Of a stretch of DNA of 58,102 nucleotides, positions 5,546-53,032 are shown piece after piece. The notes beneath the pieces were generated by a model. That model ran no database searches. It was not told the DNA's origin and was given only the letters and a program-made list of their open reading frames with translations. Source of the DNA: a virus; the IMG/VR virus record IMGVR_UViG_3300046010_004921, positions 1-58,102 of that record. One strand, given 5' to 3'. Position numbers and translations under genes: made by a program. Within the stretch, counting starts at the first letter, position 1, and each line of letters begins with the position of its first letter.

Positions 5546-5552
5546 TTTTCGC

Positions 5553-5581: not shown

Positions 5582-5586
5582 TTCTC

Positions 5587-6003: not shown

Positions 6004-6019
6004 CTTTCCCTTAACTCTT

Positions 6020-6316
6020 ATGACAAAACTACAACAAGAACTGCAACGCCTGCAAAAACTCACGAATGAGTTCCACAAGAACGTCTCTCAAATCACAGAG
6101 AAATACAAAACTGCGAGGTCTGGCTATGTCAATCGCATTGGCATGGAACTCAAAAAGTTTCGCGTGGAGAAGCGAATGAAACAGCGTGAGCTTGCTTTTC
6201 AAATTGGCATCAACAGCGCATTTCTCTCGTTTATCGAGAACGGCGACTCTTGCGCCTCCACAAGCGATAGTGTCATTACTCAAATCGCGGAATGGGTGTC
6301 TAAAAACCAATCTTGA
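6020..6316 (+). CDS. XRE-family helix-turn-helix protein
   Basis: 98 residues from ATG 6020. An upstream ATG at 5936 lies inside the tRNA and is rejected. Residues about 1-35 form a basic coiled-coil-like helix. Residues about 42-92 are an HTH_3/XRE domain: MELKKFRVEKRMKQRELAFQ as helices 1-2, then GINSAFLSFIENG for the recognition helix. It probably binds DNA as a dimer and regulates transcription. The stop overlaps the next ATG (TGATG), so it is translationally coupled to the large glycosyltransferase. Confidence 0.75.
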   Translation: MTKLQQELQRLQKLTNEFHKNVSQITEKYKTARSGYVNRIGMELKKFRVEKRMKQRELAFQIGINSAFLSFIENGDSCASTSDSVITQIAEWVSKNQS

Positions 6317-8733: not shown

Positions 8734-8788
8734 TTTAGCATAAAATTCCGGTTGCCAACCTTACGGAACATGCTACGAGAGCACTACC

Positions 8789-9850: not shown

Positions 9851-9893
9851 AACCCCTTGATTATCAAACGAAGGATGGGAGAATCGCCTAATT

Positions 9894-12167: not shown

Positions 12168-12173
12168 TCACTC

Positions 12174-12500
12174 ATGGCTAAGAAAACACTCATACAAAGG
12201 TGGCGTGAAGAGGGTCTTGCACCCGAACTCGCCCATATCATGCAATCCACCGTGTTCGCACGGGCAATGGAAATCGTCAAAGAGCACACGGAGCCGAATG
12301 ATCTGGTGATCCAGCGTGTCTATCGGGAGAACCCCGTTCACGCAGACCAAATCATATCCTCCATGCACAAGATGCAGGCTGGAGAACGGCGCGTCTGGAG
12401 AATGTTGAAATGGCTGTCGGAAGTTCAACCCGAAACCAACGGGTCGATTCCAGAGCCATTCCAGCAATACGACGAACAATACTTTGAACCACGCCAATAA
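12174..12500 (+). CDS. small protein between portal and scaffold
   Basis: 108 residues, starting MAKKTLIQRWREEGLAPELA. It is helical and charged, with no membrane segment or cysteines. It lies 6 bases after the portal stop and 3 bases before the scaffold-like gene. Short proteins in this location are usually head-completion or assembly factors, but I do not recognise this family. Confidence 0.7.
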   Translation: MAKKTLIQRWREEGLAPELAHIMQSTVFARAMEIVKEHTEPNDLVIQRVYRENPVHADQIISSMHKMQAGERRVWRMLKWLSEVQPETNGSIPEPFQQYDEQYFEPRQ

Positions 12501-12503
12501 CCC

Positions 12504-13718: not shown

Positions 13719-13727
13719 TCTCCTGCC

Positions 13728-15533: not shown

Positions 15534-15544
15534 AACTTGCGCTG

Positions 15545-15566
15545 CACCGAACGCTTCGCGTCGGTG
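15545..15566. terminator. hairpin between convergent terL and minus cluster
   Basis: CACCG-A-ACGC-TTC-GCGT-CGGTG forms a 9-bp stem with one bulged A. A second inverted repeat, GTGAGC (15564-15569) with GCTCAC (15580-15585), overlaps it. There is no U-run, but its place between convergent genes fits a bidirectional transcription barrier. Confidence 0.45.
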
Positions 15567-15568
15567 AG

Positions 15569-15952
15569 CTATTGGTTCGGCTCACTGCGGTAGTGCTTTG
15601 CCCAACGATGCGGACGATCACCGCCACGCAGTGACGGCCACGATGTCAGCGTCATGGGCTGATACAATGACGGCCTGCGGATGCGCCCTCGAATGTCGTA
15701 AAGATGATCTCCTATTTTCGTCGCCACATGTTGCCCAACACCAAGAGTCACGTCGTCAGTCCATGAGTGGTAAGGTTGAGCCTCTGGCCAGACATTACGC
15801 AGAAGGCAGAACATTTCCCAGCACCCGCCGCGCATAAAGAATCGCTCGCTGTCTTGGCGCGAACGACGAATGACCGCAATGAAATCAAGCACCGAAAGCC
15901 GAACAAATCGGATGCAGGACAACCGCTCTGGTGCGCTGGTCGTGTTATTCAT
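15569..15952 (-). CDS. conserved phage-type hypothetical protein
   Basis: 127 residues from ATG 15952. The core ERFFMRGGCWEMFCLLRNVW, then WPEAQPYHSW and ATKIGDHLYDIRGRI, resembles a short protein family seen in many phages whose function is unknown. The start overlaps the previous gene's stop by 8 bases (ATGAATAA), which means translational coupling. It is last in the minus cluster. The last 45 residues are Arg/Pro-rich and less conserved-looking. Confidence 0.65.
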   Translation of the reverse strand: MNNTTSAPERLSCIRFVRLSVLDFIAVIRRSRQDSERFFMRGGCWEMFCLLRNVWPEAQPYHSWTDDVTLGVGQHVATKIGDHLYDIRGRIRRPSLYQPMTLTSWPSLRGGDRPHRWAKHYRSEPNQ

Positions 15953-16847
15953 GGTCTTGGGTTCGCGGTGTCTGATCCGAGACGCTCCCTCCAACCTTCT
16001 CCGCGCATTCCGCATACCCGATGATGTCAATCAGCGTGTCCTGCTTCTTGCTGGTCTTTGCGCGGCTGACTTTGAGGAGGATCATCATCATGGCTACATC
16101 CCAAGAGGTGAACTCGACACCCTTCCACGCGCTCCACAGGGCGGCAATGCGGGCAAACGATTCTGATGCGTCACCGTAGTCTTTGGCCCTGTCTCCAGCA
16201 ACGATGGACTTGGCGGTGTCAGAGATGGAGGTTGGTATGGTTTCTTTTGGAGACTCATCAGCGTAGCGCCATCCGATGATGTAGGGTTTTGTGGTATTTT
16301 TCCACACCCACGTTTTTGCCTTGGAAGGACGGTGGCAAGCGTGGTGGCAGACACGGTGATCTTCTCCGATCACCCATACCTCGCGCTCCCCATCGCACGG
16401 CATTGGATCGCCCGGACGGTGCCATGTCCATTCGTGGCCTTCGTAAGTGAAGGTCAGGGGGCGGGTGGTGCGAAAGAAATAATCGTTTGCTCTGTCTTGA
16501 CTGAAAGTGGAATCACATACGTTAATGGTCTCCCCCAAATACAGAGGTCTTGTTCCAGATGGCAGCATGTCAGCCGTCCATCCGTCTTCGCGGTGCCACT
16601 TCATGCCCGGTGGCGGAGTTGGAAGTTTGAACTCATTCTTTGGTGTGGACTCAGATTTCTTGCCAACAGCATCCAGAATATGCTTGGCAATCGCCAGCCT
16701 GTGAGGGGCTTCATTGTCCCAATAAGGGTAATCAGATGGATCTGATTCGAGAGAGCCAATTCCTTTTGGAAGCGCAAGGAAAGAGTCGTCTGCAATTTGC
16801 TGGAGATTGTCGGGGTGGTTCATGTGAAGGAAAGCATCGCCCATCAT
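15945..16847 (-). CDS. hypothetical protein with C-terminal DUF6378-like domain
   Basis: 300 residues. The N-terminal 200 residues contain a Trp/Pro-rich region with PPPGMKWHREDGWTADMLP and a section with several His and Cys (VIGEDHRVCHHACHR) of unknown role. The C-terminal part SIVAGDRAKDYGDASESFAR, then VEFTSWDVAMMMILLKVSR and DTLIDIIGYAECAE (about 205-290) matches the DUF6378 domain, a small helical phage family of unknown activity. Its start region is doubled (MMGDAF), and the position of the true first Met is uncertain by one codon. Confidence 0.75.
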   Translation of the reverse strand: MMGDAFLHMNHPDNLQQIADDSFLALPKGIGSLESDPSDYPYWDNEAPHRLAIAKHILDAVGKKSESTPKNEFKLPTPPPGMKWHREDGWTADMLPSGTRPLYLGETINVCDSTFSQDRANDYFFRTTRPLTFTYEGHEWTWHRPGDPMPCDGEREVWVIGEDHRVCHHACHRPSKAKTWVWKNTTKPYIIGWRYADESPKETIPTSISDTAKSIVAGDRAKDYGDASESFARIAALWSAWKGVEFTSWDVAMMMILLKVSRAKTSKKQDTLIDIIGYAECAEKVGGSVSDQTPRTQDHE

Positions 16848-31058: not shown

Positions 31059-31850
31059 ATGAAAACACAAATTAAGAACAGGTTTACAGGCAGTGTGATA
31101 CATGAGGGCGACTACGCTTCTATTTATGAGGCAGTTGCGACGGCCATCAAATCAAAAACTAACCTTCGCGTCGCTAACCTTCACGGTGCTGACCTTCGCG
31201 ATGCTAACCTTCGCGATGCTGATCTTCGCGATGCTGACCTTTGCGGTGCTAACCTTCGCGGTGCTGATCTTTGCGATGCTGATCTTGGCTGTGCTAACCT
31301 TCGCGATGCTGATCTTCGCGATGCTGACCTTCGCGATGCTAACCTTCACGGTGCTGACCTTCGCGATGCTAACCTTCGCGATGCTGATCTTCGCGATGCT
31401 GACCTTTGCGGTGCTAACCTTCGCGGTGCTGATCTTTGCGGTGCTAACCTTCACGGTGCTGATCTTCGCGATGCTGACCTTTGCGATGCTGATCTTCACG
31501 GTGCCAAATACGCAACATTAATCATTGCACAAACACGCATTCTTCCAGACGGGGAAATTATTGGTTGGAAGAAGCTGCAAAATGGAAGTATTGCAAAATT
31601 GCGCATTCCTGAATCCGCAAAACGCTCTAATGCTTTTGGTCGCAAGTGTCGATGCTCTGAGGCTATTGTTGTGGCAATTTATGATGGTGACAACGAAGTG
31701 GATGTGGGTTTTTCCTCGCACGATCCAGCCTTTGAATACAAAAAAGGCGAAATCGTCAGGCCCAAAAAGCCGTTTTCTGAAGACTGGCAAGATGAGTGTG
31801 CTTCAGGTATTCACTTTTTCATCACGCGAGAGGAAGCTGAAAATTACTAA
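31059..31850 (+). CDS. pentapeptide-repeat protein with C-terminal DUF5758-like domain
   Basis: 263 residues. A short head (1-34) is followed by 23 consecutive A(D/N)LxxA-type pentapeptides (residues 35-149), which would form a right-handed quadrilateral beta-helix that can mimic DNA. The C-terminal region IIGWKKLQNGSIAKLRIPES, then RCSEAIVVAIYDGD and SGIHFFITREEAENY is the DUF5758-type domain often linked to such repeats. It sits alone behind its own promoter. Pentapeptide proteins can protect gyrase or act as scaffolds; the role here is unknown. Confidence 0.88.
   Translation: MKTQIKNRFTGSVIHEGDYASIYEAVATAIKSKTNLRVANLHGADLRDANLRDADLRDADLCGANLRGADLCDADLGCANLRDADLRDADLRDANLHGADLRDANLRDADLRDADLCGANLRGADLCGANLHGADLRDADLCDADLHGAKYATLIIAQTRILPDGEIIGWKKLQNGSIAKLRIPESAKRSNAFGRKCRCSEAIVVAIYDGDNEVDVGFSSHDPAFEYKKGEIVRPKKPFSEDWQDECASGIHFFITREEAENY
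31161..31505 (+). repeat. 15-bp tandem coding repeat with a 165-bp duplication
   Basis: 23 units of about 15 bases encode the pentapeptides. Bases 31173-31275 recur, apparently identically, at 31338-31440 (offset 165 bases, 11 units), indicating a recent segmental duplication. The low complexity leaves long open frames on the opposite strand and in another frame that are artefacts. Confidence 0.85.
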
Positions 31851-35921: not shown

Positions 35922-35936
35922 AGGCGAACGACTAGC

Positions 35937-36713
35937 ATGAGCCACGCCGCCACAGACTCACGCATACAGGACCAACGCCAAACGGCGTTGGCTCTATGCG
36001 CTTGTTATGCCTCTTCGTGTGGCCGGGTGACGTTGTATCTCGGGGACTGCATGGAAGTGCTGCCAACTCTCGGGCAGGTCGATGCGTGCATCACTGATCC
36101 GCCGTATGGGATCGCCTATGATCCAAGCAAAAGCACCCAGAAAGGAATCCAACGCTTCGGCATGGTGATCGGCGACGATGAAATCTTCGACCCGTCGCAT
36201 CTGATGGAATACCCGGACGTGATCCTTTGGGGAGTGAACAACTACTGCCACGCAATCCCGCCAAGAATCGGGCAATGGTATTTCTGGGACAAGGTGACGC
36301 AAAACGCGCTCAAGGTGCGAATTGCCGAAGGCGAATACGCATGGCACAAGAAGGGAACTAAACCCCGCGCATTCCGGCACCTATGGAGCGGAGCGTATCG
36401 CGGAAGCGAAGGCGGCGAGAAGTCGCAGCATCCGACCCAGAAACCCGTGATCCTGATGCAATGGTGCATGGATGCAGCAAAGCTCGCCGATGGCGCAACG
36501 GTGCTTGATCCGTATATGGGGAGCGGAACCACTGGAGTCGCCGCCGTGCGGTCTGGACGCCGATTCATCGGCATCGAGAAAGACCCGACGCACTATGCCA
36601 CGGCACTCGAACGCATCCAGCGCGAACTCGCGCAGGGTGATTTGTTTCTGCCCAACGCTCAATCTCTGCCAACCCTGGGGCACGACCAGGACAACACGAC
36701 AAAGGCCCAATAA
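35937..36713 (+). CDS. DNA (adenine-N6 or cytosine-N4) methyltransferase
   Basis: 258 residues. Catalytic motif DPPY (54-57) is followed by HPTQKP (165-170) and the SAM-binding DPYMGSGTTG (191-200) with GIEKD (212-216). The order catalytic before SAM motif is the beta class. The enzyme would methylate a specific sequence on phage DNA, most likely to resist restriction or mark DNA. No cognate restriction gene is adjacent. The C-terminal 40 residues have no motif. The next gene starts 1 base after its stop. Confidence 0.85.
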   Translation: MSHAATDSRIQDQRQTALALCACYASSCGRVTLYLGDCMEVLPTLGQVDACITDPPYGIAYDPSKSTQKGIQRFGMVIGDDEIFDPSHLMEYPDVILWGVNNYCHAIPPRIGQWYFWDKVTQNALKVRIAEGEYAWHKKGTKPRAFRHLWSGAYRGSEGGEKSQHPTQKPVILMQWCMDAAKLADGATVLDPYMGSGTTGVAAVRSGRRFIGIEKDPTHYATALERIQRELAQGDLFLPNAQSLPTLGHDQDNTTKAQ

Positions 36714-38960: not shown

Positions 38961-39698
38961 ATGGCTGAAGAAAACCGCTTCAAGAAATACTTCCCCGCTT
39001 TGGCGGAAGACCCGAACTCTCTTCTCAATATCAATACGCCAAGCCGTGCTACAGTCTCCACTGGCGGGTTGGACTATCAAGCGCCATCTTTCGGCCTCGA
39101 CTTGACTAAGCTGGCTCCCAAATTTGAGGATGTGTATATTGGCGGTGAGCGTCCAGCCACACCTCAAGTTGACCTTGATTACCTCTTGGAAATGGCCCGC
39201 CGCAAGCGCATGATGCAAGAGGCTGGCGCCAACGTCGCTGGACGCAGGCAGGAATTGCGTGAGCGTGGGATGCTTGGATATGAAAATGCCACTATGCCTA
39301 TGGCGGCAGCTGAGCGCGTAATGACCCGACTGACTCCAGAACAGGTTGCGCAAATGGCTACCATTCCACAATCAGCCTTGAAAGAATCCACAGTTAAGAC
39401 GATGCCGGGAATCGGCACCGCTGTTAAATTTGGCAATGGCGGAACCGCAGTGGTTGGCCGTTACGGCACTGGAATCGCCACACCACGCACAGAAAATCAA
39501 GGTGAAGCTATGATCGAAGGTATGCCAGCCTCCAAATACTTTGCCGAGAAAGCTGGCGAACAAGGCGTCTCCAATCGCTATGCAACTGCCGTGCCAACAG
39601 GCGTCACCGACAAGCAAGACCCTTGGGGCGTCAAGCCTCGCTACACGGGAAAAGCTATTGTTGAAGGCGCGATGAACAAGAAAAAGGCCAAAGCGTAA
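38961..39698 (+). CDS. virion-type hypothetical protein
   Basis: 245 residues (MAEENRFKKYFPALAEDPNS...), partly disordered, with a helical centre (YLLEMARRKRMMQEAGANVA) and a Gly/Thr-rich C-terminal half ending in KKKAKA. Probably an internal or tail component by position, but no family is seen. It is followed 6 bases later by the 39705 gene. Confidence 0.5.
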   Translation: MAEENRFKKYFPALAEDPNSLLNINTPSRATVSTGGLDYQAPSFGLDLTKLAPKFEDVYIGGERPATPQVDLDYLLEMARRKRMMQEAGANVAGRRQELRERGMLGYENATMPMAAAERVMTRLTPEQVAQMATIPQSALKESTVKTMPGIGTAVKFGNGGTAVVGRYGTGIATPRTENQGEAMIEGMPASKYFAEKAGEQGVSNRYATAVPTGVTDKQDPWGVKPRYTGKAIVEGAMNKKKAKA

Positions 39699-39704
39699 TC
39701 CTAT

Positions 39705-41603
39705 ATGCCCGTCATCTCTCTGCCAGAATACCTTGGAATTTCGGAGGCTCCACAGCAGCCGGTTTTTCAACGCACCCGTCAAGTCGAGCCTGATTCACCT
39801 TGGGCGCGAACGATGCAGGTGGCAGACTCGTTGACGGCACTTCGCAACCAGCGTCCGATGGCGCAAATTCAGGCGATTCAGAACGAATACGACATGATTC
39901 GTGAGAATGCCGAAAAGCTGCGCAGGGAACGTGAGGCAGCGATGCAGGCTGAGCAGGCAGTTGGTGCTCTATTTGACGTGGACGGACAGAAACCAGACTA
40001 TCTGGAGCGCAAGCAGGCCGTGCTGAAGCAGTTCCCGATGGCGCAATTCGACCCGCGTGTTCAAAATTACATCGAGAATAACGACAGGATGTTTGACGCC
40101 CAACAGAAGGCGGAAGCGCGTCGTCAGGAGGAGATTACCACCCGTGCGGCTGAATTGGCTGGCGTTGGCATAAACCCGCAAGAGGCTATGCAGTATGCTC
40201 AACGTGGGCCGATTGCTGTGTCTGAGGCTAAATATAAGGCTACGCAAAAACCACCAGCGGAAATGTCTCCGTTGGCTCAACGCGGCCTTGAAGAGATGAT
40301 GAAACTTGAAGCTGCTGGTGATGCAGCCGGTGTGGCAAGAGTCAATAATTTCATGGTGAATCAGGGCATTCATCCAAATCCATCTGCTAGAATTATACCA
40401 ATTCCAGAAGAGGATGGTATGTATTTCGGAACTCAATCACCTTCATCTACCGGCACTCGTCGTGGTGGGGTGAATCCAGTTTTTGAGGAATACCGTAAGC
40501 TGTATCAAAACGCCCTTGAGCGTGAAGCTAAAGCGCGTGAAGCCATCAATGAGGACGAATTCCCCCCATTAACAGATGCAAATGGCAAGCCAATTCCGAC
40601 CAAAGCGCCGCCTCAACCATATGAATTAGAGTCGTCCAAGATTGTCCAGCAGGCGTTGCAAATGGGCTACGACCCTCGCTATAACACAATGGTTCCGGTT
40701 CCTGCTGAGCCGATTGCTGGAATTAACCCGCGATCATTTGTCGAAGCTGCTGAATCTATCGCTAATTCGGGCAATCGAATCGTAACTCCGATTGATTACA
40801 GTCAGGCTGAATTGACACCATATGCAGGATTGGGCAATCAAGCGCCTATTCTGGGTCGTCCAGAACAGCCATTCCAGCCCGGCATGACTTCCTTCATCCC
40901 TTCTGGAACATCTGCCAATATCACCAATATTGAGCCAGCGTCTTTGGATAAGAGCGCGTTGATGTCCATGCCAAAAGATGCTCGCAGTGATTCTTTCTAC
41001 AAGGAAACACTCAAACGTACGGATTTGACTCCGGTGGAGCGTGCCGGACTATTGGAAGAATACAAGAAAACGGCAATGCAAAATGTTCCGATTGAGCAGG
41101 CTGGAACTTCTATCAAAAAGGTTTTAGATCGACCACAAACGTTGGAAAAACGCATTCGTGACGTGGAGAGAATCAGCGAGAGGGCTGACGATACTCAGAA
41201 ATGGTCTGATGCGTGGGAGGCTTCAAAAAACAAAATTCGTGACGCAGTTGATACGATTTCTAATGAAACCGGATATACGTCAGAACAGATTTTCAACTCA
41301 CTCAAGGAAGGTGAGCGCATTAAGTTTAAGGTTGACGGGCAAAACATTGATTTGAAGCAATGGATTGCCAATCTTGTTGGTTCTCGTAATTGGAGAACCG
41401 TGCCATTGGTTGATACGCCGTCCGAATTTACACCTTGGAAAAAGGATGGGCTTGGAGCGTCTGCGCGGTCAGATAGAAGTCCGCCGATTTGGAAGGCTGT
41501 ATTGGATGATGTGTTGAAAAATCCAACAGGAAACGCATTGCCCACCAACAAAGTTGGTGTTAGCGTTGATAACCCTGTCAGATCAATCACTCCCATTCAA
41601 TAA
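39705..41603 (+). CDS. large coiled-coil virion-type protein
   Basis: 632 residues. Residues about 40-120 are coiled coil (IQAIQNEYDMIRENAEKLRR, then REREAAMQAEQAVGALFDVD), then helical, disordered and mixed domains. It resembles internal or ejection proteins of podovirus-like phages. Its last base is the first base of the next ATG (TAATG), so synthesis of the giant protein depends on it. The two probably act together in the virion. Confidence 0.6.
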   Translation: MPVISLPEYLGISEAPQQPVFQRTRQVEPDSPWARTMQVADSLTALRNQRPMAQIQAIQNEYDMIRENAEKLRREREAAMQAEQAVGALFDVDGQKPDYLERKQAVLKQFPMAQFDPRVQNYIENNDRMFDAQQKAEARRQEEITTRAAELAGVGINPQEAMQYAQRGPIAVSEAKYKATQKPPAEMSPLAQRGLEEMMKLEAAGDAAGVARVNNFMVNQGIHPNPSARIIPIPEEDGMYFGTQSPSSTGTRRGGVNPVFEEYRKLYQNALEREAKAREAINEDEFPPLTDANGKPIPTKAPPQPYELESSKIVQQALQMGYDPRYNTMVPVPAEPIAGINPRSFVEAAESIANSGNRIVTPIDYSQAELTPYAGLGNQAPILGRPEQPFQPGMTSFIPSGTSANITNIEPASLDKSALMSMPKDARSDSFYKETLKRTDLTPVERAGLLEEYKKTAMQNVPIEQAGTSIKKVLDRPQTLEKRIRDVERISERADDTQKWSDAWEASKNKIRDAVDTISNETGYTSEQIFNSLKEGERIKFKVDGQNIDLKQWIANLVGSRNWRTVPLVDTPSEFTPWKKDGLGASARSDRSPPIWKAVLDDVLKNPTGNALPTNKVGVSVDNPVRSITPIQ

Positions 41604-44600
41604 TGCCCAAATATCTTGTCGAACTCAAGGATGGAAGAAGGTTTCAGGTTGAGGCTGACAGACAGCCAACGCCTGAAGAATTGGCTCCATTTTTCACCCC
41701 CAAACCAGCAATTCCACGCGGTCAAGAGCCCGGTTATCTGTCTCAGTTGGGCGGTGCTCTTGATGTTGGCTTCAGGCAGATGGCATCGGGTGTTGGCACG
41801 ACTTTCAATGCTCTGACCGGTGACGAACAAGATGCCGCTCAATATCTTGCTCAAATGGGCGCTCTGCAAAAAGAGCAGGAAGCATCTCGCACGGCGGAAG
41901 ATGTGGCTTTGATGCAGGAGTTTAAGGAAAGCGAGGAGGCTTACAAACAGGCTCGCGGGCCACTCGAAACCATTGAAGCTCTTGGGGGATATTTGGGAAC
42001 GACAGCAAGACATCCGGGAGCTGCCTTCAAACAGGCAGTTCAGTCTGCCCCCAATGCGTTGATTAGCGGAGCAACAGGACTTGCTGGATATGCCATTGGT
42101 GGTGCTCTTGGTGCTGGCGCTGGACTTGAAACTGGCCCTGGTGCAATTCTCACGGGTATTGCTGGAGCCACCGCTGGCGGTGCCATCTCCAATACCTTAA
42201 TGGAGGCAGGGCCAGCGATTTACGACATCCTCAACGAAAGAACAAATGGCGCTGCCGCCAACATGACGGCGGATGAGATTTCTGCATATCTGAAACAGAA
42301 CCCCGACATTATGTCTGAGGGTTTGAAAGCCGGGGCTATTCGCGGAACAGTTATTGGCGCTGTCGAAGGGCTTGGATTGAAGGGCGCTGGCGCATTGATG
42401 ACAATTCCAGAGCGTGCCGCCGCTCGCGCTGCTCAAAAAACGCTAGTCAACGCTGGTGTTGATATTGCCTCCAAGGAGGCGGTTGACGCGGCATTGCTCA
42501 ATCCGGCGTTGAATGCGGCTGTCAAAAGTGCTGCCACGGCTGCGAAACAACAATTCACGCCATCAGGCAATGTGGCACGAATATTGGGTGGCGCTGCGAT
42601 TGAAACAGGATCGGCGGGAGCGGGTGAAATTGGTGCTCAATATGCCATGGGGCAGGAAATCAACCCAACCGAGGCATACATGGAGATGCTTGGTGATGTT
42701 GGCTTGTCTCTTCCGAGCGCACTTGCCTCAAAGACTATTGCCGGAACGAAGGAGCTTATGCTTCCGACTCCCGAAGCAGTTGCAACTGAAACTGCTGCCG
42801 CGCCAACAACTCCCGCCGCCCCCGCAGAAGAGCCTTCAATGCCGCCTCCGCCTGAGACTCCGGTTGCAAGAGCAAATCTTAATGCCACAAAAGGAGTTCC
42901 CGGCACAGAAATTTCAGGCGCAACCGCAGAAGAAGTTCTCAATGCAAACGAACAAATCACCAAAAACCTTCAAGCAATTCAAGCGCAAACCGCTCAGCCG
43001 CCAATTCAGCCTGAGCAAGCGGCTGAAGCGCCTGCGGTAGTTGAAATGCCAGCGCCAACACAGGCTGGCGCAATTCCCCTTTCCGAAGGCGCTGAACGCA
43101 ATCGCGCCATCATTGCTGACGCCGCTGCGAAAATGCGCGGTCAACTGCCCCCTGAAGTTTCTGCCGGACTTGAATCCGTCATTCCAGCGCAACCCACAAC
43201 ACCACCCGAAGATGTCCTTATCGAAATCCCCGACGAAGAAAGCCTTCTCCAAGAACCTCAAGACGGAGTTGAAGGCCGGGAAACCGCTGAAGCAAGCCTT
43301 AGCGATCAGCTACTCAGTCCAGCGCCAAGCCAAAAAGAAGTAGTTGGCACCAATTTAATGAAGCCCTACGCGGCAATTTCAGTTCCAGATTTGGAAAAAC
43401 TGCCCGAACCAGATTGGTTAAAACGCCGAGCCTATCTGCAAGGCAAGCTCCAAAACGCACAGAAAGATAAAGATAATCTCAACAAAACACCCAAAAATCA
43501 ATGGGGTGATTACGAATACAATGAAAACGCCAAAATCAATGAAGTGTTCTCAAGCGTGCGAGCAGCCATCCAAGACATGCAGCTTGCAAGACCAGACCTC
43601 GAAAAAGGCTTTGCTCAAAGCCAAGGCGGAAGCGAGGCGAAAGGAATACGACGCGCAACGGGCGAGGTTCGGACTACCACCCCTGACGAGAGAGGAACAG
43701 GAGGCGAACTTCAACAGCAACCTGAGGCACTTTCAGGCATCAGCAGTCAGTCTCAAGTTACCGAGACACCCCGGCAGCTTGGGGGTAATCTTGCACGCAC
43801 TGGGAGCGGCGGAGGCTACATCATAGGGCCAAACGCCCAAAAGTTTGCCGCCGATATTCGCGCTCAATTTCAAGTAGATGAACTCGCTGAAAAAGCTGAT
43901 AAGCTGAAAGAACGATACTATTCGATCAATGCCAGCAAGGGTAAAAAAGAGGCTGATGCTAAAGAGCAATCTTTCATGCAGTGGAAACAAGCAGAGGCAA
44001 AAGCGACTAAAGCCAAGGCTGATGCCTTTGCGGAACTTCGCAAACAAAATAAGGGTTTCACCGTTGCTCAATTAGAAGATCGTGAGCCGTTCATGGTCGC
44101 TAAAACCTTGGAAAAGCATGACTTGGTTAAGATGGCAACTGACATGGGTTATGTGCGCCAAGGTGAAACATTTGCATTCGCGCAACCAATCACCCCGCAA
44201 GGGACGCCGACGCCCGCTACCGAAGGCAAGGTCATGTTGCGAGGCGTTGGCAGTGAGCGGGATGCGACTAAGCCGGAGCAGATGACGCCGGAGGAATTAA
44301 CGAGCATAGCAAAACAGGCAAAAGAATGGGCCTCTACCCCGATTTCAGAAATAAAAAGAAAGTACCAAGCAGAGTTTGGGGCGTCAGACGCGTACATGGC
44401 TGCCTATCCCTATGCCGCTGAGATATACCAAGAGAGACAGGTTGCTTTGTCTAAAATAACTGACAAAAAAGCACAAAAACAACACGCATCTAATATCCAG
44501 TCGGCTCTTGAAGATAGGAAGCCGGTGTCTGCCGAAGCCGTTGACACCTACGGCATTAGACTTCCAGAAGGCTACATCAAGCAGGGTGAACTCTACATCT

Positions 44601-47600
44601 TTCAACCGGGGGCAACTGGCGAACCAGTTCAGGCAGCGCCCACTCGGTTAGATGTCGCAAGGCAAGAGCTTGAGCAAGCACGAGGCGTAAAACCAAACTG
44701 GGCACCCAAGGCCGAAAGGTTTGCCCAAATTTACGAAGGTGAAGATATTCGCCCTGAAGTAGCCGCAAAGAACGGCGAGGCATTGATGTCTGCCATACAA
44801 AATAAGCAGTGGACCGATCTGCTTCATCCCGACAATAAAATTTCTCGCAAAGTTTGGAAGGAGTGGACCGGCAAAGCCCTTCCGGCTGGACTCAAAGCAT
44901 CTCAAAAGGCATTCAAGGATTTTCTCGACGCCGCATATCCATCTCCCCAAACCACAACGGTAGCCACAAACGAAACCGCCCCTCCCTCGGCTAAGGGAGA
45001 GGCGGTAGCCAGTGCTGAGCTTCAGCCCGTGGAAGGGTCGATTCCCACGGTTCCTAAAGTCTCCGCCGAAGAAACCGTAAAGTCAACAGAAAAATCCTTA
45101 GAAGCCAAGACCCCGGCTTTGGTCAATCGCCGTGTTGAGCAGATTCTCAACGCTGGCGGCAGGACGATGGTGGACGATTTGGACAAGTTCTTGAAGAGTT
45201 TGAGCGATCAGGAGTTCAACGACTTCGTTCAGAGCGATTTCTTTGAAGACCCAAGTGTTGCCATCAAGCCTACAGATAGCAGGCAGGCAAAGAACGCCAA
45301 AAGGAAGGCTGCGACTGATGCGCTGGCTCAGGGATTTATTCCGTCTCCCAAGGCGCAAAAGGAGGCCAACGCCTTTGAGCGGGCAGAACGCGAGCTTGAG
45401 CAGGAGCAGCAGAAGCAAAACGCTCAGTCCATTTCCAACCTGTTTAGCCCAAAACGCACGAATCCTGTCAGAAATCAGGTCAAGTCTGCGGATGTTGAGC
45501 AGGCAATCGGCGAACTGCAAAACTCAGGAGAGGTGCCAAGTGCCGTGTTCACATGGCGTGGAACTTCTGCGGATATGCGTCGTGAGCGTGCCAAGTATCA
45601 GGCGCAATTCCCCGGTGCTGTGGCTGCTGCCGAGGCTGAGAATGTCGAAGGCGTGTTCGAGAACGGCATGTCGTTCATCTTCACAGACCGCGTGGTTGTC
45701 ACCGATCTTGACCGCGCAAAAGCCAAGGAAGATGGCGTGACACCTGCTGTTGCCGCAGCAAAGCGTGTTTTGACGCACGAAAACATGCACAAAGGCTTCT
45801 GGCTTCTTCCTGCCAAGCAGCAGGCGCAAATCATGCGATTCCTGCGCGAGATGTTCCCGGCAGAGGAGCTTGATGAGCTTGCGAAGGTTTACAAGCAATA
45901 CGCCGACTGGAGGACGAACCCGGCGCATGAGGTCGCTCTTCTCGATGAACGCCTGCAAAAGTATATCGAGGAGACGAAAACCATCCCCACAGATGGCGTC
46001 TGGAAGCAATTCTGGGACTACATCAAGGAAATCTGGCGCAAGTGGACGGGCAAGCCAAAGGGCGAGCCTACGCTGTCCAGCATGAAGGACGTTGTTCGTC
46101 TGCTTCGCGGTGCTCTCAAGAACGCTCACAAGGCACGTCCTGATGTGACGGTGGGTGGGGATCAAATACTGATTTATGGATACAAGCCATTTGTTCAAAC
46201 AGGAATCGCCACGCGAGATGGTGGCATCGGCATGGCGTCAATTTCGAGAGCAGACGACTCTGCAAGAGAGGCTGCAATTCGAGAAGGCGTTTCAAAAACA
46301 AATTGGAATGCGCTTTCGGCAACTGAGAGGGCGAAAGCCCTGGAAGAATTTGGACTTAAATCTATTTTATCGCGTTACTCCTTCGATGCCGCGATACTTC
46401 CTGTTCGCATTACCAACAAAAGAACGGGAGAAGGTAGACCTGCTAGTGTATATGTTGCGGGAGCTAATCCAGCAATTGAGGTGCGATTCGACACCAGAAA
46501 TTTGACTGATTTGCAAAACGCTGACGCTGTAACTGCATTCACCGGCATTTACGACATGTCACAAGAAGAGGTTATCCATACCGCTCAGCATCTCAATGCC
46601 TACCAAAAATGGAAAGATTCTGATTCAAAACAGGATTTTGAAGACTTTGAGGTCAATTATTACAATTCAATGCTGATTGACATGCTTCAAGCATCTTCAG
46701 ATGGATTGAGCCGTGGCGATTCAAGAGTTGCTAATATCGTCGTATCAGCGTGGAATCTTTACAACCCCAACATTCCACTTTATGATATAAATGAGATTGT
46801 CGCCAGATTGGTCAAATCACAAACAGCGCCAGCCTTTACGATGGAAATTGGCCGTCAACTGATTCAGTTCAACCGCCAAGACTTCACCACAGAAACCGGA
46901 TGGATGCGCTTTGTGGAAGCGATGAAGAAATATCTCACTGAGGTTTTGAACGCTCTCAGAACTTCGTTGCAGATGGTTAAAATCGGCCAATCTGGCGATA
47001 TGATTCGCTCTGAAATTGAGCAAGTTGAAGCTATTTTCGATGCTTTTGAGTTTGGTGGAGGTATTGATACTGGAATAAGGTATAGCTACGCCTCCGAATC
47101 CGCCCAAAACAGCGCGGCAGGTCAACAAGCAGCGCGTTCCACGTCCTACACTCCGCGTCAGCTTGAAGTGTTCTTTGGCGTGCGCAAAGCCTACGAGCAG
47201 ATGCCAAAACAGAATGGCCCGTCTGTGCCGCTTTCCGAGCTTTTCAGCAAGACTGGCGAGCTTGTGGACAACCTGACGCAAGCCGAGTTTGACAAGATCG
47301 TGCAGGACATGTACGCGGACAATGCGGCGCTGCAAAACGACCAATTTGAGCCAAATTCCATCGTCATCCTCCCCACAGGCGCGATGCAGTCTCTCAGCAA
47401 TCCTGCGCTACTCACGCTGGATGATGCGATTCAGCGCATCGAAGGCTTCACCGCTGACAACGAGGATGTCGATAGCTGGCCCGACGACGTTCAGCGGCGT
47501 TTTGAGGAATCGGAATACAACAGCGCGATTCAGGATAACGACGTTCTTGCTGCATGGGAACTGGCATCACCTGACGTGCGTGATCCAAAGCTGGAGCCGT

Positions 47601-50600
47601 TGGTGGAGATTGCTCGCAAAGGCAGGCAGCATGATGTGGAATGGGACAAGGTTGCCAATGAGCTTCGCGCTGCTGGCAAATACTCGATTGAGAACGTCGA
47701 TGCCGAACTCGCCAAGCGTCTTCCGCAGGACATTATTGATGCCGCACAAGATGACACAAGCGCGTTGGACGAATGGCTGGCATCAGATGAAGTGCTGGCA
47801 GACGCGAAGAAGCCATTCATCGCCGAGGTTGAGCAACGCATTGAAGCCGCCATCAAGCGTGTTGAGGACACTGGACGCTATACTTGGAGCGGCTCTGAGT
47901 TTGAGCCTGTTGAGGACGAGGATGTGAGCGTGCGTTACTCGCTTGCTGCAAGTTCTGAGGTTGCGCAGAAGGATTCTGAATACCTCGCTGCCGTCGAAGC
48001 GGGCGACATGGAGAAGGCGCAGCGGATGGTCGATGAGGCGGCTGGAGGAGATCAGATTATCAAAAATGCCTCGACCTTTGATTTCCAAACTGGCGTTCGT
48101 TATGTCGTCAATGCGTTTCACGGCTCAAAGTCTCAAACGCCGATAACCGTTTTTGACAAATCTAAGCTAGGAAGCAACACTTTTGCAGAATCGGCTAAGA
48201 AAGGATTCTTCTTTGCGGGCTCAAAGGAAACGGCATCAAGCAAGGATTATTACATTCGCCGAGAATTTGAAGCGTCCGAAAGCGGCGAGGAGTGGGTTCG
48301 TGATTACAATAAGGCAATTAAGGCGTTGATCCGCGAAGCCGTGGAATTGACCTCAGTCGAGGAAGTTAACGATCTTCCGTTTGGATCTGGCGAATTCGTT
48401 TCAGAGTGGGGCGACATTAGCATTGCTACTCTTCTTGACGGGAGCATTTCCGACGACCCTGAATACATAATCTCATCAAGGATGCAATTCCTTCGCGATG
48501 AGCTTGCGCCTGCGTTAGAGGCTCTTGGAGTTGACGCAAAGGCGGATATTGACGCACTATCTGCGTCACTGCCTGACAGTTATCTGGACACCTCAGAAGG
48601 CCAGATGGTGAACGCCTATCTGTTCTTGAATAATCCGATGGTGTTTGACGACAATAGCAACGAATACCGCGAACAATCGTATGCCGACAGAATTGATGAG
48701 GCGCTGGAAAATGGGCATGATTCGGTCATTATCAAAAACACTTTCGACGGCGGGCCACTTGATGCGATTTTTGTTGTTTTCGATCCGTCTCAAATCAAAT
48801 CCGCCGACCCCGTAACCTACGACGAGTCCGGCAACGTGATCCCGCTTTCCCAGCGGTTCCAGACTACTTCGCCGGACATTCGTTACTCCTACGCTCAAAC
48901 GCCAGCGCAACGCTCGGCTGTCAGCCAGTTCAAGGCAGATATTACGGAAGCAGCGCAAGGCTTGCCCAATTTCGCTGACTACGAAGGCCGTCCAATCAAG
49001 GATTTTGAGTCATTCCCGCACGCCAAGCTGTGGTTCAACGCCTATCAAAACGCCGCCCAAGAGTTGCTTTCCAAGCTGGAAAAGGATGGCATGACGCTGG
49101 AGGACATCTTCAACAAGTTCAAAGGCGACATGGATTTCCGCATCGCTCTTGGCTTGTATGGCAGAGACACAGGTGGCCCGATTGCGCAGACCATTCTTGA
49201 AGCCCAACTTTTGCAGCGCGTATATCTGGCAATCAACAAGGCAAGAACGCCAAGTCAGAGAGCACAGGCTCAAAAGCTGCATGACAAGATTGCGGCATTC
49301 TTCCAGCAAGGGGCGACATTGCGTGGTCAGAACCTCTATGTGAACAATCTCATCTACCAAGACCCGCGCACGGCTTTTGCGTTCGGCATTCTTCAAGCTG
49401 AGAAGAAGATGAAGGATAACGGCACCGAGGCCGTGAATAACGCGATGGAAGGCTCACTGCCACAGGTGAAGGCGAATCTGTCCAATGAGATTCCGAAGGT
49501 GGATGAACAAGCTGCTACGGCTGCTGCTGAGGCCGAGGAGGAAGATTCTAATACCTCTCTTCTCCGTGAAGCGGAGGAGGGAATGGATTCTGAAACGAAA
49601 TCTCTTTGGGAGGCAACCAAAGACCTCTTTCGCAAGATTGCTTACCTCAATAGAAGGAAACAGCAAGCCAAGTCAGCCGCTAAAGCATCTCTGTCGGCAG
49701 CGGATTTTAATGAATTGGACTCCATTCCGCTTGACGAAATTGACAAAAAACAAGCAGAGTTCTTAGCTCAAGCTCAGGCCAATCTGAGAAAACTCCTTGG
49801 TCAGGAATCGGCTACTGATACGCCATCCCAGAAAGCAACTCGCGCCAAACGCAAGAAGGGTGCCGATGTGCTCAAAAAGCGTGCCGAGAAAGGTCAGGAG
49901 ATTGATCCAGCCGAGAAAGAAGCTGCTGAAATTGAGCTTGCTGAAAACAAGGCATCTCAAATCATCTACCGCTTTGAGGAACTTTATCGCCAAGGCTTCA
50001 AGAATCCTCCGGAAGGAATGTCGAAGAAGCAGCAAAAGGACTCCATCATCAAGGCGTTCAGGGATCAGGTTCGCAACCCTGTGTCATTTGAGCAATTTGC
50101 TGAACGTCTAGCCAATCTCAAAGTTGGCGAGGAAGTCGCTGAACGCATGTTCCTTACCGCATCCAGAGAACGCGCCGATTTGGTTCGCATGAAGGACTTT
50201 AAGATCGGAAAGCGCAAAGTGGAGATTGCCGACAAGCAGGCATCACGCTTGATTTACGCTACTGAAGAACGCTTCCGCCAAGGCTCAAAAGACCTCACAA
50301 AGTCAACTGACGGAGACTCTATCAACAAGGCTTTCCGCGATCAGGTCAGTGACCCGGTTTCTGAGTCGGATTTCGCCAAACGCCTGTCCAAATTGAATGT
50401 CTCGCAGGATGTTGCTTCTCGCTTGTTCAAGACGGCAGCAAGGGAAAAGCTGGATCAAGAAGCGATGGCTGCTTACGACCTCCTTGAAGGCCCGAAAGCT
50501 CAGAGCAAAATTGCCCGTGAGATTGCCCGTATGCGCCTCGGCGAGGAAATCCCGCTGAAAACCCCGATTCCTTGGCTTCAGTTATTCTCTCAACGTGCGT

Positions 50601-53032
50601 CCACGGTTGAGGCATACCGCCAACGTGTATTTGACGCCATTGCTTCCAGTGACGTGTTCAAGAACATCAGCGATGCGCAAAAGACCAAGCTGGCAGACCT
50701 GTTTGCCGAATCTTGGAATGGTCAACGCGAGAAGATCATCAATCGCATGATTGACAAAAATCGCGACATGCTTGCAAATCAAGACAAGAAGAAAGCCGCA
50801 AAAGCCCTCAACGACTCGCGCAATCGCATCCTTGAAGCAGTCAACCTTGGCGTTTTCGACAACGACGAGTTGGTTGCCATCCTTGGCGACAAGTTCGGCA
50901 TTAAGATGAAGTTCACCGAGGCTGAGAAGGCGAAACTACGCGACCTTGCCGAGCAACTTCAGGATGACACACTGAACAAGGCCAAGCGGAACAAGTTGGG
51001 ACGCGAGTTCCTGATGGAGCTTGAGGCGGCTTCGCAGGTTCCGATGGCTGAGTTGATGGCAAACTTCTGGGTGTCATCGGTTCTGTCTGGCTGGAATACC
51101 ATCATCTCGATTGGCTTGTCCTTCCTCAACGCCACGGGAATCAATATCGTGGGCATCCATGTGGCGAGGGCGGTTACCGCCTTTGCCAAAGGGGATGTGG
51201 CTGGTGCTGTTAAGGCTATCACTACAATGTTCAGCGATTACGCGAGGCATTTGCTGTCTTTCCCATCTGCTATGAATCGCGCTTGGCAGTATCTTTGGAC
51301 GGGTGACATATCATTCCTTGAGTCTGGTGCTAACGACCCCTTCAAGAAGGTGAACTCGCTCAAAGAGGTTGCCCGCTATCAGGTTGTGGCTGACTTGATT
51401 GCCAAAGACCCGAATGCTGTAAAAGCCGTTCTCGGACGCTTCATGCAGTTCATGAGTCGCCTTCTGACCGCTCTGGACGGCTTCAACGTGATGGTGACCA
51501 AAGCTGGAACATTGCACGCCGCCATGTTGCAATCCAACATCACGCCTGAGCAGATTCGGGACATCACGCTGAAGTCCGACCTCAAGATTTACAAGGATCG
51601 CATCGTCAAAAGCGAGTTTGGTGGCAATTACCCCACTAGCCTACGCGATAAGGCTTACTTGAACTCGTTGGCAGAAGCCGAGATGTATGCCGACTTGTCC
51701 AAGCTAGGACTCAAGGTTGAGAACCAAGACTATCTTGCGGCGGAATCGGCAATGACGCTTGACCCGACTGGCGTTGGCGGGCACTTCTACAATCTTGTGC
51801 GTTCCTTCGACACGCGCATCATGACTTCGACCAAAGAGCGGCTGAAGCAGGCTGAAGCGGATTGGGCTGTGAAAAAAGACCCTTGGAATGCTCTCAACTA
51901 CGTTGTCTGGAATACGCTCAACTTCATCGCTGAGCAGGGAACGAATATCACAGGTGTTCGATTCGCCCGATTTGCAGGCAACAAGTTCAACCAGTCTGTG
52001 AGCTTTATTCCGCTGGCTGGACTCCTTCGACTTTATGAAGCTGACAACGCCAAGCTGGAAAACGCACAGCAGGCTTTCCGTGACTCCATTTGGCGCAATC
52101 AGATTGTGGGCGTTGTGGTGACAGCCATTGGTGTTCAACTTATCAGGGCTATCTCAGACGAGCCGGATGACAAGAAGCGCGGTTGGTTCATCAACGGCGG
52201 CTGGAATAACCTTACTCCTGCACAGAAGAAGCAGAAGCTCTCTGAGGGCCAGCGCGAATACACCCTTGGATTCGGCGACAAGGTGTTCAACTACCAGAAC
52301 TGGCTTCCTAGTGCATTGCTGGCAGCAATAGGCAACGTTTCAGACATGATTCGCTATTCGCCCGATGAATGGAAATCGAAAGGATTCGCCAATCAAGTCA
52401 TCACCGCTGGTGTTTCTGGCGTGCAATCCTCGCTGGAAATCCCCGCCCTTGCTCAGCTTGGGCAGTTGTTCGCCAACGACCTCGCCACCAAAGACCCGGC
52501 TGAAAAGGCCATCGGACGCTTGGGACAGGTTTTGGCAGGATGGGCTGGCGGATTCATGCCTCGCTTCCTCAAGGACATTGATTACATGACGGCACCTGAC
52601 ATGCGCCGTTACACCACGTTCTACGAAAAAGTCGCATCGCACATCCCGGTTTACCGCCGCTACGTTGGCAATGACTACTACGATATTCTTGGCAACAAGA
52701 TTCAGAAGAACGCATATCCCGGCAGCCGTGATTTTGGCAAGCTCAAGGACGAGCCTGAATACCAGATGCTCGGTGCCCTGAACGCCCGTGGAATCTGGCT
52801 GACACCTGCCAATGCCGAATACCGCATGGTGGGCAAAGGACGCTACCGCCGCCGTTTGACGCAGGAGGAAGCCGACGCTTATAGCCTTGAAACGGGCAAG
52901 CTCTACAAGCAAATGATCCTTCGATACGGCCCTAGAGCCTTGCAAATGCCCGCTGAACGCGCTAAGGACTACATCTCAGACAAGGCAGACGCCATGCGCG
53001 ATCTTGCCCTCCAAAGAGCAATGAGACGATGA
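41603..53032 (+). CDS. giant polyvalent virion protein with zincin and ADP-ribosyltransferase-like regions
   Basis: 3809 residues. Order: N-terminal YLVELKDGRRFQVEADRQPT motif; Gly/Ala-rich membrane-active segment (about 150-207); Pro/Ala linkers (about 395-560); mixed helical modules; a zincin with HENMH at 1392-1396 and Glu/His residues downstream (NPAHEVALLDE); an AT-rich block with an EEVIHTAQH feature; a region bounded by three RYS motifs (1826, 2111, 2427); an ADP-ribosyltransferase-like module (about 2165-2402: VVNAFHGSKS, then KGFFFAG and VFDPSQIKSADP); a tandem helical repeat (about 2783-2955); membrane-like helices (about 3163-3195, 3501-3517); and a basic C-terminus. Such multi-domain proteins are thought to travel in the virion and enter the host with DNA to counter defences. 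Domain calls are by motif and known family resemblance. Confidence 0.75.
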   Translation: MPKYLVELKDGRRFQVEADRQPTPEELAPFFTPKPAIPRGQEPGYLSQLGGALDVGFRQMASGVGTTFNALTGDEQDAAQYLAQMGALQKEQEASRTAEDVALMQEFKESEEAYKQARGPLETIEALGGYLGTTARHPGAAFKQAVQSAPNALISGATGLAGYAIGGALGAGAGLETGPGAILTGIAGATAGGAISNTLMEAGPAIYDILNERTNGAAANMTADEISAYLKQNPDIMSEGLKAGAIRGTVIGAVEGLGLKGAGALMTIPERAAARAAQKTLVNAGVDIASKEAVDAALLNPALNAAVKSAATAAKQQFTPSGNVARILGGAAIETGSAGAGEIGAQYAMGQEINPTEAYMEMLGDVGLSLPSALASKTIAGTKELMLPTPEAVATETAAAPTTPAAPAEEPSMPPPPETPVARANLNATKGVPGTEISGATAEEVLNANEQITKNLQAIQAQTAQPPIQPEQAAEAPAVVEMPAPTQAGAIPLSEGAERNRAIIADAAAKMRGQLPPEVSAGLESVIPAQPTTPPEDVLIEIPDEESLLQEPQDGVEGRETAEASLSDQLLSPAPSQKEVVGTNLMKPYAAISVPDLEKLPEPDWLKRRAYLQGKLQNAQKDKDNLNKTPKNQWGDYEYNENAKINEVFSSVRAAIQDMQLARPDLEKGFAQSQGGSEAKGIRRATGEVRTTTPDERGTGGELQQQPEALSGISSQSQVTETPRQLGGNLARTGSGGGYIIGPNAQKFAADIRAQFQVDELAEKADKLKERYYSINASKGKKEADAKEQSFMQWKQAEAKATKAKADAFAELRKQNKGFTVAQLEDREPFMVAKTLEKHDLVKMATDMGYVRQGETFAFAQPITPQGTPTPATEGKVMLRGVGSERDATKPEQMTPEELTSIAKQAKEWASTPISEIKRKYQAEFGASDAYMAAYPYAAEIYQERQVALSKITDKKAQKQHASNIQSALEDRKPVSAEAVDTYGIRLPEGYIKQGELYIFQPGATGEPVQAAPTRLDVARQELEQARGVKPNWAPKAERFAQIYEGEDIRPEVAAKNGEALMSAIQNKQWTDLLHPDNKISRKVWKEWTGKALPAGLKASQKAFKDFLDAAYPSPQTTTVATNETAPPSAKGEAVASAELQPVEGSIPTVPKVSAEETVKSTEKSLEAKTPALVNRRVEQILNAGGRTMVDDLDKFLKSLSDQEFNDFVQSDFFEDPSVAIKPTDSRQAKNAKRKAATDALAQGFIPSPKAQKEANAFERAERELEQEQQKQNAQSISNLFSPKRTNPVRNQVKSADVEQAIGELQNSGEVPSAVFTWRGTSADMRRERAKYQAQFPGAVAAAEAENVEGVFENGMSFIFTDRVVVTDLDRAKAKEDGVTPAVAAAKRVLTHENMHKGFWLLPAKQQAQIMRFLREMFPAEELDELAKVYKQYADWRTNPAHEVALLDERLQKYIEETKTIPTDGVWKQFWDYIKEIWRKWTGKPKGEPTLSSMKDVVRLLRGALKNAHKARPDVTVGGDQILIYGYKPFVQTGIATRDGGIGMASISRADDSAREAAIREGVSKTNWNALSATERAKALEEFGLKSILSRYSFDAAILPVRITNKRTGEGRPASVYVAGANPAIEVRFDTRNLTDLQNADAVTAFTGIYDMSQEEVIHTAQHLNAYQKWKDSDSKQDFEDFEVNYYNSMLIDMLQASSDGLSRGDSRVANIVVSAWNLYNPNIPLYDINEIVARLVKSQTAPAFTMEIGRQLIQFNRQDFTTETGWMRFVEAMKKYLTEVLNALRTSLQMVKIGQSGDMIRSEIEQVEAIFDAFEFGGGIDTGIRYSYASESAQNSAAGQQAARSTSYTPRQLEVFFGVRKAYEQMPKQNGPSVPLSELFSKTGELVDNLTQAEFDKIVQDMYADNAALQNDQFEPNSIVILPTGAMQSLSNPALLTLDDAIQRIEGFTADNEDVDSWPDDVQRRFEESEYNSAIQDNDVLAAWELASPDVRDPKLEPLVEIARKGRQHDVEWDKVANELRAAGKYSIENVDAELAKRLPQDIIDAAQDDTSALDEWLASDEVLADAKKPFIAEVEQRIEAAIKRVEDTGRYTWSGSEFEPVEDEDVSVRYSLAASSEVAQKDSEYLAAVEAGDMEKAQRMVDEAAGGDQIIKNASTFDFQTGVRYVVNAFHGSKSQTPITVFDKSKLGSNTFAESAKKGFFFAGSKETASSKDYYIRREFEASESGEEWVRDYNKAIKALIREAVELTSVEEVNDLPFGSGEFVSEWGDISIATLLDGSISDDPEYIISSRMQFLRDELAPALEALGVDAKADIDALSASLPDSYLDTSEGQMVNAYLFLNNPMVFDDNSNEYREQSYADRIDEALENGHDSVIIKNTFDGGPLDAIFVVFDPSQIKSADPVTYDESGNVIPLSQRFQTTSPDIRYSYAQTPAQRSAVSQFKADITEAAQGLPNFADYEGRPIKDFESFPHAKLWFNAYQNAAQELLSKLEKDGMTLEDIFNKFKGDMDFRIALGLYGRDTGGPIAQTILEAQLLQRVYLAINKARTPSQRAQAQKLHDKIAAFFQQGATLRGQNLYVNNLIYQDPRTAFAFGILQAEKKMKDNGTEAVNNAMEGSLPQVKANLSNEIPKVDEQAATAAAEAEEEDSNTSLLREAEEGMDSETKSLWEATKDLFRKIAYLNRRKQQAKSAAKASLSAADFNELDSIPLDEIDKKQAEFLAQAQANLRKLLGQESATDTPSQKATRAKRKKGADVLKKRAEKGQEIDPAEKEAAEIELAENKASQIIYRFEELYRQGFKNPPEGMSKKQQKDSIIKAFRDQVRNPVSFEQFAERLANLKVGEEVAERMFLTASRERADLVRMKDFKIGKRKVEIADKQASRLIYATEERFRQGSKDLTKSTDGDSINKAFRDQVSDPVSESDFAKRLSKLNVSQDVASRLFKTAAREKLDQEAMAAYDLLEGPKAQSKIAREIARMRLGEEIPLKTPIPWLQLFSQRASTVEAYRQRVFDAIASSDVFKNISDAQKTKLADLFAESWNGQREKIINRMIDKNRDMLANQDKKKAAKALNDSRNRILEAVNLGVFDNDELVAILGDKFGIKMKFTEAEKAKLRDLAEQLQDDTLNKAKRNKLGREFLMELEAASQVPMAELMANFWVSSVLSGWNTIISIGLSFLNATGINIVGIHVARAVTAFAKGDVAGAVKAITTMFSDYARHLLSFPSAMNRAWQYLWTGDISFLESGANDPFKKVNSLKEVARYQVVADLIAKDPNAVKAVLGRFMQFMSRLLTALDGFNVMVTKAGTLHAAMLQSNITPEQIRDITLKSDLKIYKDRIVKSEFGGNYPTSLRDKAYLNSLAEAEMYADLSKLGLKVENQDYLAAESAMTLDPTGVGGHFYNLVRSFDTRIMTSTKERLKQAEADWAVKKDPWNALNYVVWNTLNFIAEQGTNITGVRFARFAGNKFNQSVSFIPLAGLLRLYEADNAKLENAQQAFRDSIWRNQIVGVVVTAIGVQLIRAISDEPDDKKRGWFINGGWNNLTPAQKKQKLSEGQREYTLGFGDKVFNYQNWLPSALLAAIGNVSDMIRYSPDEWKSKGFANQVITAGVSGVQSSLEIPALAQLGQLFANDLATKDPAEKAIGRLGQVLAGWAGGFMPRFLKDIDYMTAPDMRRYTTFYEKVASHIPVYRRYVGNDYYDILGNKIQKNAYPGSRDFGKLKDEPEYQMLGALNARGIWLTPANAEYRMVGKGRYRRRLTQEEADAYSLETGKLYKQMILRYGPRALQMPAERAKDYISDKADAMRDLALQRAMRR

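What the first reader, a model, noticed from the sequence alone, without database searches (positions are those of the whole stretch)
41603..53032. 3809-residue polyvalent protein with zincin and ADP-ribosyltransferase-like modules
Seen: one uninterrupted frame of 11.4 kb (a fifth of the genome) with HENMH at 1392-1396, a VVNAFHGSKS...DPSQIKSADP block matching polyvalent ADP-ribosyltransferases, membrane-like segments at both ends, and a tandem helical repeat. Known: such proteins (Iyer/Aravind 'polyvalent' class) are injected with DNA and carry several anti-defence effectors. Inference: this is a large injected effector and the best candidate for an undescribed system, coupled to the 39705 coiled-coil protein.
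Basis: partly seen in the sequence, partly recalled or inferred. Interest (0 to 1): 0.85.

Follow-up and report, generated by a model that had tools for sequence, protein, structure and literature searches.

The report
Phage giant protein with swappable effector cassettes
A bacterial virus carries one enormous multi-part protein, probably delivered into the host with its DNA, and near-identical viruses have replaced whole enzyme segments of it, at least one of which also sits in an otherwise different virus's giant protein, swapped at short conserved border sequences.

Summary
The 3,809-aa frame at 41603-53032 is real, on an uncultured tailed-phage record. It is a polyvalent-type protein (Iyer et al. 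2017). ART domain confirmed (PF18760, 48.4 bits alone; H2173, F2203/4, D2373). One zincin-like block (HENMH 1392-1396, Glu1449) is conserved in relatives, but no solved zincin matched. A second zincin-like segment has HTAQH and is not canonical. Membrane segments are weak. Virion delivery is untested.

The main result goes beyond the finding. Two phages with 100% identical terminase carry the same gene with modules cleanly replaced. Window vs G001: flanks 96% DNA identity, ART core 22%. Window vs an otherwise different giant protein (L136-L138): flanks 38%, core 93%. Exchange falls inside a conserved leader (D.EYLAAVE.GDMEKAQRMVDEAA) and trailer (IKSADPVTYD..GNVIPLSQRF....DIR[YF]S). In G002 the ART cassette is absent at an 8-nt RYS microhomology. 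Across 38 cassettes, leaders and trailers are about 80% identical, cores 27%; similar exchanges occur in other gene families.

Best explanation: an ejected multi-effector protein diversified by cassette exchange at conserved borders. RYS as processing site is speculation. Known class, new variant.

The parts
41603..53032 (+). giant polyvalent-type gene, 3809 aa
41603..42997 (+). residues 1-465: N-terminal module, replaced in G001 together with the C-terminal part of the upstream gene
42998..43255 (+). residues 466-551: Pro/Ala-rich conserved linker block
43256..44188 (+). residues 552-862: module absent from G001
44189..44641 (+). residues 863-1013: conserved block; 46-nt and 38-nt exact DNA runs shared with distant phages at its two edges
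44642..44944 (+). residues 1014-1114: cassette; G001 has an unrelated ~300-aa module here; L017 shares 1019-1150 at 84% DNA identity while its backbone is ~66%
44945..45469 (+). residues 1115-1289: conserved block opening with a 73-nt stretch 100% identical to distant phage L173
45470..46162 (+). residues 1290-1520: zincin-like block
45776..45790 (+). HENMH (1392-1396)
46163..47077 (+). residues 1521-1825: cassette with HTAQH (1659-1663), no catalytic Glu; replaced in G001 by LPD23 + LLHEVQH module; 74-76% DNA identical to L020/L173
47075..47086 (+). IRYS motif (1825-1828)
47084..47968 (+). residues 1828-2122: conserved helical block, 95-97% identical in relatives
47930..47941 (+). VRYS motif (2110-2113); in G002 fused directly to the sequence after the second RYS
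47969..48043 (+). residues 2123-2147: conserved cassette leader
48044..48784 (+). residues 2148-2394: ART core (H2173, F2203/F2204, D2373)
48785..48889 (+). residues 2395-2429: conserved cassette trailer ending DIRYS (2425-2429)
48890..49522 (+). residues 2430-2640: backbone block, diverged from relatives
49928..50179 (+). helical repeat copy 1 (2776-2859)
50216..50455 (+). helical repeat copy 2 (2872-2951); the repeats are absent from G001
50555..53029 (+). residues 2985-3809: conserved helical C-terminal core shared by distant phages
39705..41603 (+). 632-aa neighbour; first 149 aa identical to G001, remainder replaced
38961..39698 (+). 245-aa neighbour, also partly mosaic

Best explanation
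The gene encodes a polyvalent-type phage protein: a conserved helical C-terminal core and a conserved zincin-like block form a chassis into which effector modules such as an ADP-ribosyltransferase are plugged. Modules are exchanged between phages by recombination inside short conserved borders (leader and trailer for ART cassettes, other linkers elsewhere), so near-identical phages carry different effector sets. Shown: the frame, the ART family assignment, the mosaicism, exchange between otherwise different giant genes, and breakpoints at conserved borders. Inferred: the protein is packaged and delivered with the DNA; the effectors act on host targets early in infection; the zincin processes the chain; RYS marks module ends for a protein-level reason.
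For: Terminase identical in all three phages and the 5095-15581 region 100% covered, but only 46% (G001) and 28% (partial gene in G002) of the giant gene aligned at >=85%. Mirror-image DNA identities: window/L136 flank 38%, leader 78%, core 93%, trailer 90%, post 43%; window/G001 flank 96%, core 22%, trailer 82%, post 100%. L136-L138 share only this cassette with the eight window proteins tested in the fetched stretches. In G002 the ART cassette is absent at CGTTACTC. 38 cassettes, 703 pairs: median aa identity leader 77%, core 27%, trailer 82%. Ten DNA islands between otherwise dissimilar genes: 6 end at the trailer/DIR[YF] and 4 start at the leader, versus 0.17 and 0.10 expected (p<=5e-5). 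Longest exact DNA runs with distant relatives: 5 of 6 lie at window/G001 switch points (p=2.5e-4). ART family. Zincin motif and secondary structure.
Against: No evidence of virion packaging or injection; nearby virion genes were not recognisable. Zincin fold not confirmed by structure search. C-terminal core model is low confidence (pLDDT 54.7). Only three alleles of this phage, at least two of them metagenomic contigs. Borders could be conserved for protein function, with recombination there merely a by-product. Loci were fetched with a leader/trailer query, which biases the survey towards genes having such cassettes.
Confidence: 0.72

Rival explanations
1. The mosaic is an artefact of metagenome assembly: contigs from different phages were joined at repeated linkers.
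For: The alleles come from IMG/VR virus records built from metagenomes, and borders are near-repeats in other phages.
Against: Frames stay open. The shared ART core is 93% identical, not 100% as a misjoin of the same reads would give. L136, L137 and L138 come from three different metagenome records with the same cassette arrangement, and L002 and L003 share the LPD23/LLHEVQH module from two. Most exact border runs are <=46 nt, the longest 73 nt.
Confidence: 0.06
2. It is a tail tape-measure protein (long, helical, hydrophobic C-terminal segments) that happens to carry enzyme domains.
For: Largest gene, strongly helical C-terminal core, two C-terminal hydrophobic stretches.
Against: Length differs by 430 aa between phages with identical terminase; several unrelated modules; tape-measure proteins appear among structure hits only at E>0.1.
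Confidence: 0.12
3. Leader, trailer and RYS are part of the ART fold (last strand plus a cap) and are conserved for folding; exchange breakpoints fall there only because conserved DNA recombines best.
For: IKSA is the end of the PF18760 match and the leader is a predicted helical hairpin beside the ART. RYS codons vary although residues are conserved.
Against: Ends are ~80% identical while ART cores are 27% identical; [YF]S motifs lie within 25 aa upstream of 17 of 49 leaders in unlike contexts versus 3.6 expected. These do not exclude this rival; it is compatible with the main exchange claim and only removes any dedicated role of the borders.
Confidence: 0.35

Closest known systems
Polyvalent proteins (Iyer et al. 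2017, PMC5512222)
   Same: Phage-encoded giant protein combining ART, zincin-like and uncharacterised domains; LPD23 occurs in the G001 and L020 homologues.
   Different: In the 2017 main text searched here there is no mention of linkers or an RYS motif; it notes mosaicism in Helicobacter proteins and possible cassette recombination at one Verrucomicrobium locus. The chassis here matches no Pfam or PHROGs family.
ART-PolyVal (PF18760) / Tox-ART-HYD2
   Same: Segment scores above the curated cut-off; His, aromatic and Asp positions aligned.
   Different: A ~110-aa insertion splits the match; embedded between conserved leader and trailer.
Polymorphic toxin systems (own knowledge, and as compared in PMC5512222)
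   Same: Conserved carrier with exchangeable effector modules at conserved junctions.
   Different: Phage protein, internal rather than C-terminal cassettes, several cassette sites per chain; immunity genes were not looked for.
T7 gp14/gp15/gp16 ejection proteins (own knowledge)
   Same: Three successive genes of rising size (245, 632, 3809 aa), helical C-terminal core.
   Different: No sequence match; fold not determined.

Membership tests
Polyvalent proteins | several domains of disparate activity in one chain | tested here: met
   ART plus zincin-like block plus further unrelated modules
Polyvalent proteins | encoded by phage or conjugative element | tested here: met
   virus record with terminase large subunit and DnaB-like helicase
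Polyvalent proteins | delivered into the host with DNA | not testable with these tools
   needs virion proteomics
ART-PolyVal PF18760 | score above curated cut-off | tested here: met
   48.4 bits alone vs 31.2; 29 bits in full-length context
ART-PolyVal PF18760 | H-Y-D active site | tested here: met
   H2173, aromatic F2203/F2204 (Phe in place of Tyr), D2373 aligned with relatives
ART-PolyVal PF18760 | ART fold | tested here: inconclusive
   viral model A0A8S5UGT4 (PolyVal ART) E=3e-4, TM 0.60 of target; PDB tankyrase only E=0.25
zincin-like metallopeptidase | HEXXH with downstream Glu | tested here: met
   HENMH; HENGH in L017/L020/L021; HEXXXH in L173; Glu1449 conserved
zincin-like metallopeptidase | three-stranded sheet plus two helices | tested here: inconclusive
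   predicted order consistent; no zincin in PDB search
zincin-like metallopeptidase (second copy at 1521-1825) | HEXXH motif | tested here: not met
   HTAQH, catalytic Glu missing; second His lost in L021
T7 gp16-like ejection protein | homologous core domain | tested here: inconclusive
   low-confidence model; structure hits with TM<0.25

The most novel reading that the evidence does not exclude
The leader, trailer and RYS borders form a shared cassette format used by phages and prophages of several bacterial phyla, letting effector cores be traded between unrelated injected proteins, with RYS also being the site where the zincin cuts the chain into separate effectors.
Probability: 0.25. Interest if true: 0.82.

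Novelty: new variant of a known kind. Interest (0 to 1): 0.62.

Why it matters
Polyvalent proteins are thought to be a first strike against host defences. Showing that phages with identical terminases carry different effector modules, and that an ART core moves almost intact between different giant proteins through conserved borders, makes effector diversification in incoming phage proteins directly measurable. The borders also give a search handle: core segments between leader and trailer are candidate effectors, some of them below family thresholds.

Tried and rejected
Near-DNA search in INPHARED: none; tblastn found only a Helicobacter prophage ART, and weak ART/leader hits. PHROGs for the giant protein: none. 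PDB sequence searches with the ART segment, a G001 cassette and the C-core profile: nothing meaningful. Isolated scan of the other window segments against Pfam: nothing above cut-off; LPD23 only in G001 and L020. First combined alignment A3 was misaligned and dropped; A5 replaced it. C-core model too poor for fold claims. Codon sharing in leader and trailer (0.51 and 0.54) exceeds chance (0.37 and 0.34) but ordinary homologous core is similar (0.42-0.52), so I do not claim DNA-level selection. RYS as a DNA recombination signal: rejected, since codons vary. RYS enrichment outside trailers and leaders is modest: 29 of 83 [VIL]R[YF]S versus 12 expected in all, several belonging to the C-core. The ~300-aa G001 cassette looked TGT-like to me from memory; no search supported it. 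Literature: no paper on an RYS motif.

Full report
OBSERVATION. The window is the whole of a 58,102-b virus record. The frame 41603-53032 is open and 3,809 aa long. HENMH occurs once (0.008 expected). The ART call survives: PF18760 gives 29 bits in the full-length protein and 48.4 bits when the segment is scanned alone, with H2173, F2203/F2204 and D2373 aligned to relatives. Two helical repeat copies are real. The membrane-like segments are weak except two near the C-terminus.

PHAGE. A tailed phage with a terminase large subunit, DnaB-like helicase, endonuclease VII-like gene and glycosyltransferases, without near relatives in INPHARED. IMG/VR holds two close relatives, G001 (67,561 b) and G002 (53,067 b): most long aligned segments are 90-99.9% identical and the terminase is identical over 601 aa.

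MOSAIC. Aligning the window protein with the G001 homologue (3,379 aa) shows near-identical blocks (466-550, 863-1013, 1115-1520, 1828-2147, 2395-2450, ~3040-3809) alternating with replaced modules (1-465, 552-862, 1014-1114, 1521-1825, 2148-2394) and a diverged helical region. The 632-aa upstream protein is identical to G001 over its first 149 residues and then unrelated; the replaced tract continues into the giant gene to about residue 465, which fits the two proteins being inherited as a pair.

ART CASSETTE. In G001 the ART core is replaced (22% DNA identity, i.e. unrelated) between a 5' flank of 96% and a stretch after the trailer of 100% identity. In G002 the sequence runs from VRYS straight into what follows the second RYS, through CGTTACTC shared by both sites. 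The direction, deletion or insertion, is not known. The window's core is 93% identical in DNA to that of L136-L138, giant genes from three metagenome records that share nothing else with the eight window proteins tested; identity falls to 38% and 43% outside leader and trailer. Within the leader identity is 78%, so the crossover probably lay inside it.

GENERALITY. An alignment of leader, core and trailer retrieved 70 loci in bacterial genomes (Clostridia, Verrucomicrobia, Bacteroidales, Armatimonadota and others) and 277 confirmed IMG/VR stretches, of which 80 were kept. In 38 paired cassettes leaders are 77%, trailers 82% and cores 27% identical (medians of 703 pairs). Ten DNA islands of 82-95% identity join otherwise dissimilar genes; six end at the trailer or DIR[YF] and four begin at the leader, against 0.17 and 0.10 expected for random placement (p<=5e-5 each; the same when near-duplicate pairs are removed). 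The longest exact DNA runs between the window gene and distant relatives, 73, 46, 41, 38 and 35 nt, lie where the window and G001 switch. The survey is biased because loci were fetched with these borders.

RYS. Of 103 trailers, position 7 after the RF is Ile in 93, position 8 Arg in 71, position 9 Tyr/Phe in 74, position 10 Ser in 54; all six Arg codons are used. [VIL]R[YF]S occurs 83 times in 123 proteins versus 12 in shuffles, 50 of them after trailers. This suggests a protein-level motif at module ends. Zincin processing at this site is a guess; Iyer et al. proposed zincin autoprocessing of polyvalent proteins without naming a site in the passages read.

ZINCIN AND CORE. Block 1290-1520 keeps HE..H and Glu1449 in divergent relatives, with HEXXXH in L173, a variant described by Iyer et al.. 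The model (confident over roughly 1291-1485) gives strands and helices in the expected order, but Foldseek found no zincin. Module 1521-1825 has HTAQH and is not a canonical zincin; G001 has LPD23 and LLHEVQH instead. The C-terminal core recurs in distant phages at 22-49% identity; its model is helical but poor.

MECHANISM. Most likely: chassis plus exchangeable effectors, delivered with DNA, diversified by recombination at conserved borders. Exchange is shown by sequence; delivery, targets and processing are inferred. Assembly joining is unlikely because the shared core is 93%, not 100%, identical and arrangements recur in separate records.

KNOWN OR NEW. The protein belongs to the polyvalent class on the features tested. 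The exchange format with conserved borders was not found in the papers searched, a limited library. I rate it a new variant of a known kind.

Noticed in passing
35937-36713: N4/N6 DNA methylase gene (PF01555) is missing from both close relatives, whose alignment runs from 35930 to 36654.
   Followed up: no
31162-31497: 15-nt tandem repeat (22 copies) inside a 263-aa ORF encodes a pentapeptide-repeat stretch (ADLRDA...); alignments to G001 and G002 break up here.
   Followed up: partly
6313-8733: 806-aa protein with a GNT-I family match (PF03071, 29.7 bits, cut-off 25.4), unexpected in a phage.
   Followed up: no
15948-16847 (-): 300-aa protein with a strong DUF6378 match.
   Followed up: no
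4196-5095: Endonuclease VII-like gene region is not conserved in the two close relatives.
   Followed up: no
L003 7104-8060: ~300-aa cassette of unknown family replacing the window's 1014-1114 module; no Pfam or PDB match.
   Followed up: partly
window 43886-44632 (residues 762-865 and 870-1010): Block 863-1013 is partly duplicated within the protein (EDR.P...GY..QGE.Y.F.P); it also recurs in L164, L171 and L034.
   Followed up: partly
5928-6003: tRNA-Trp (CCA) gene on the phage.
   Followed up: no
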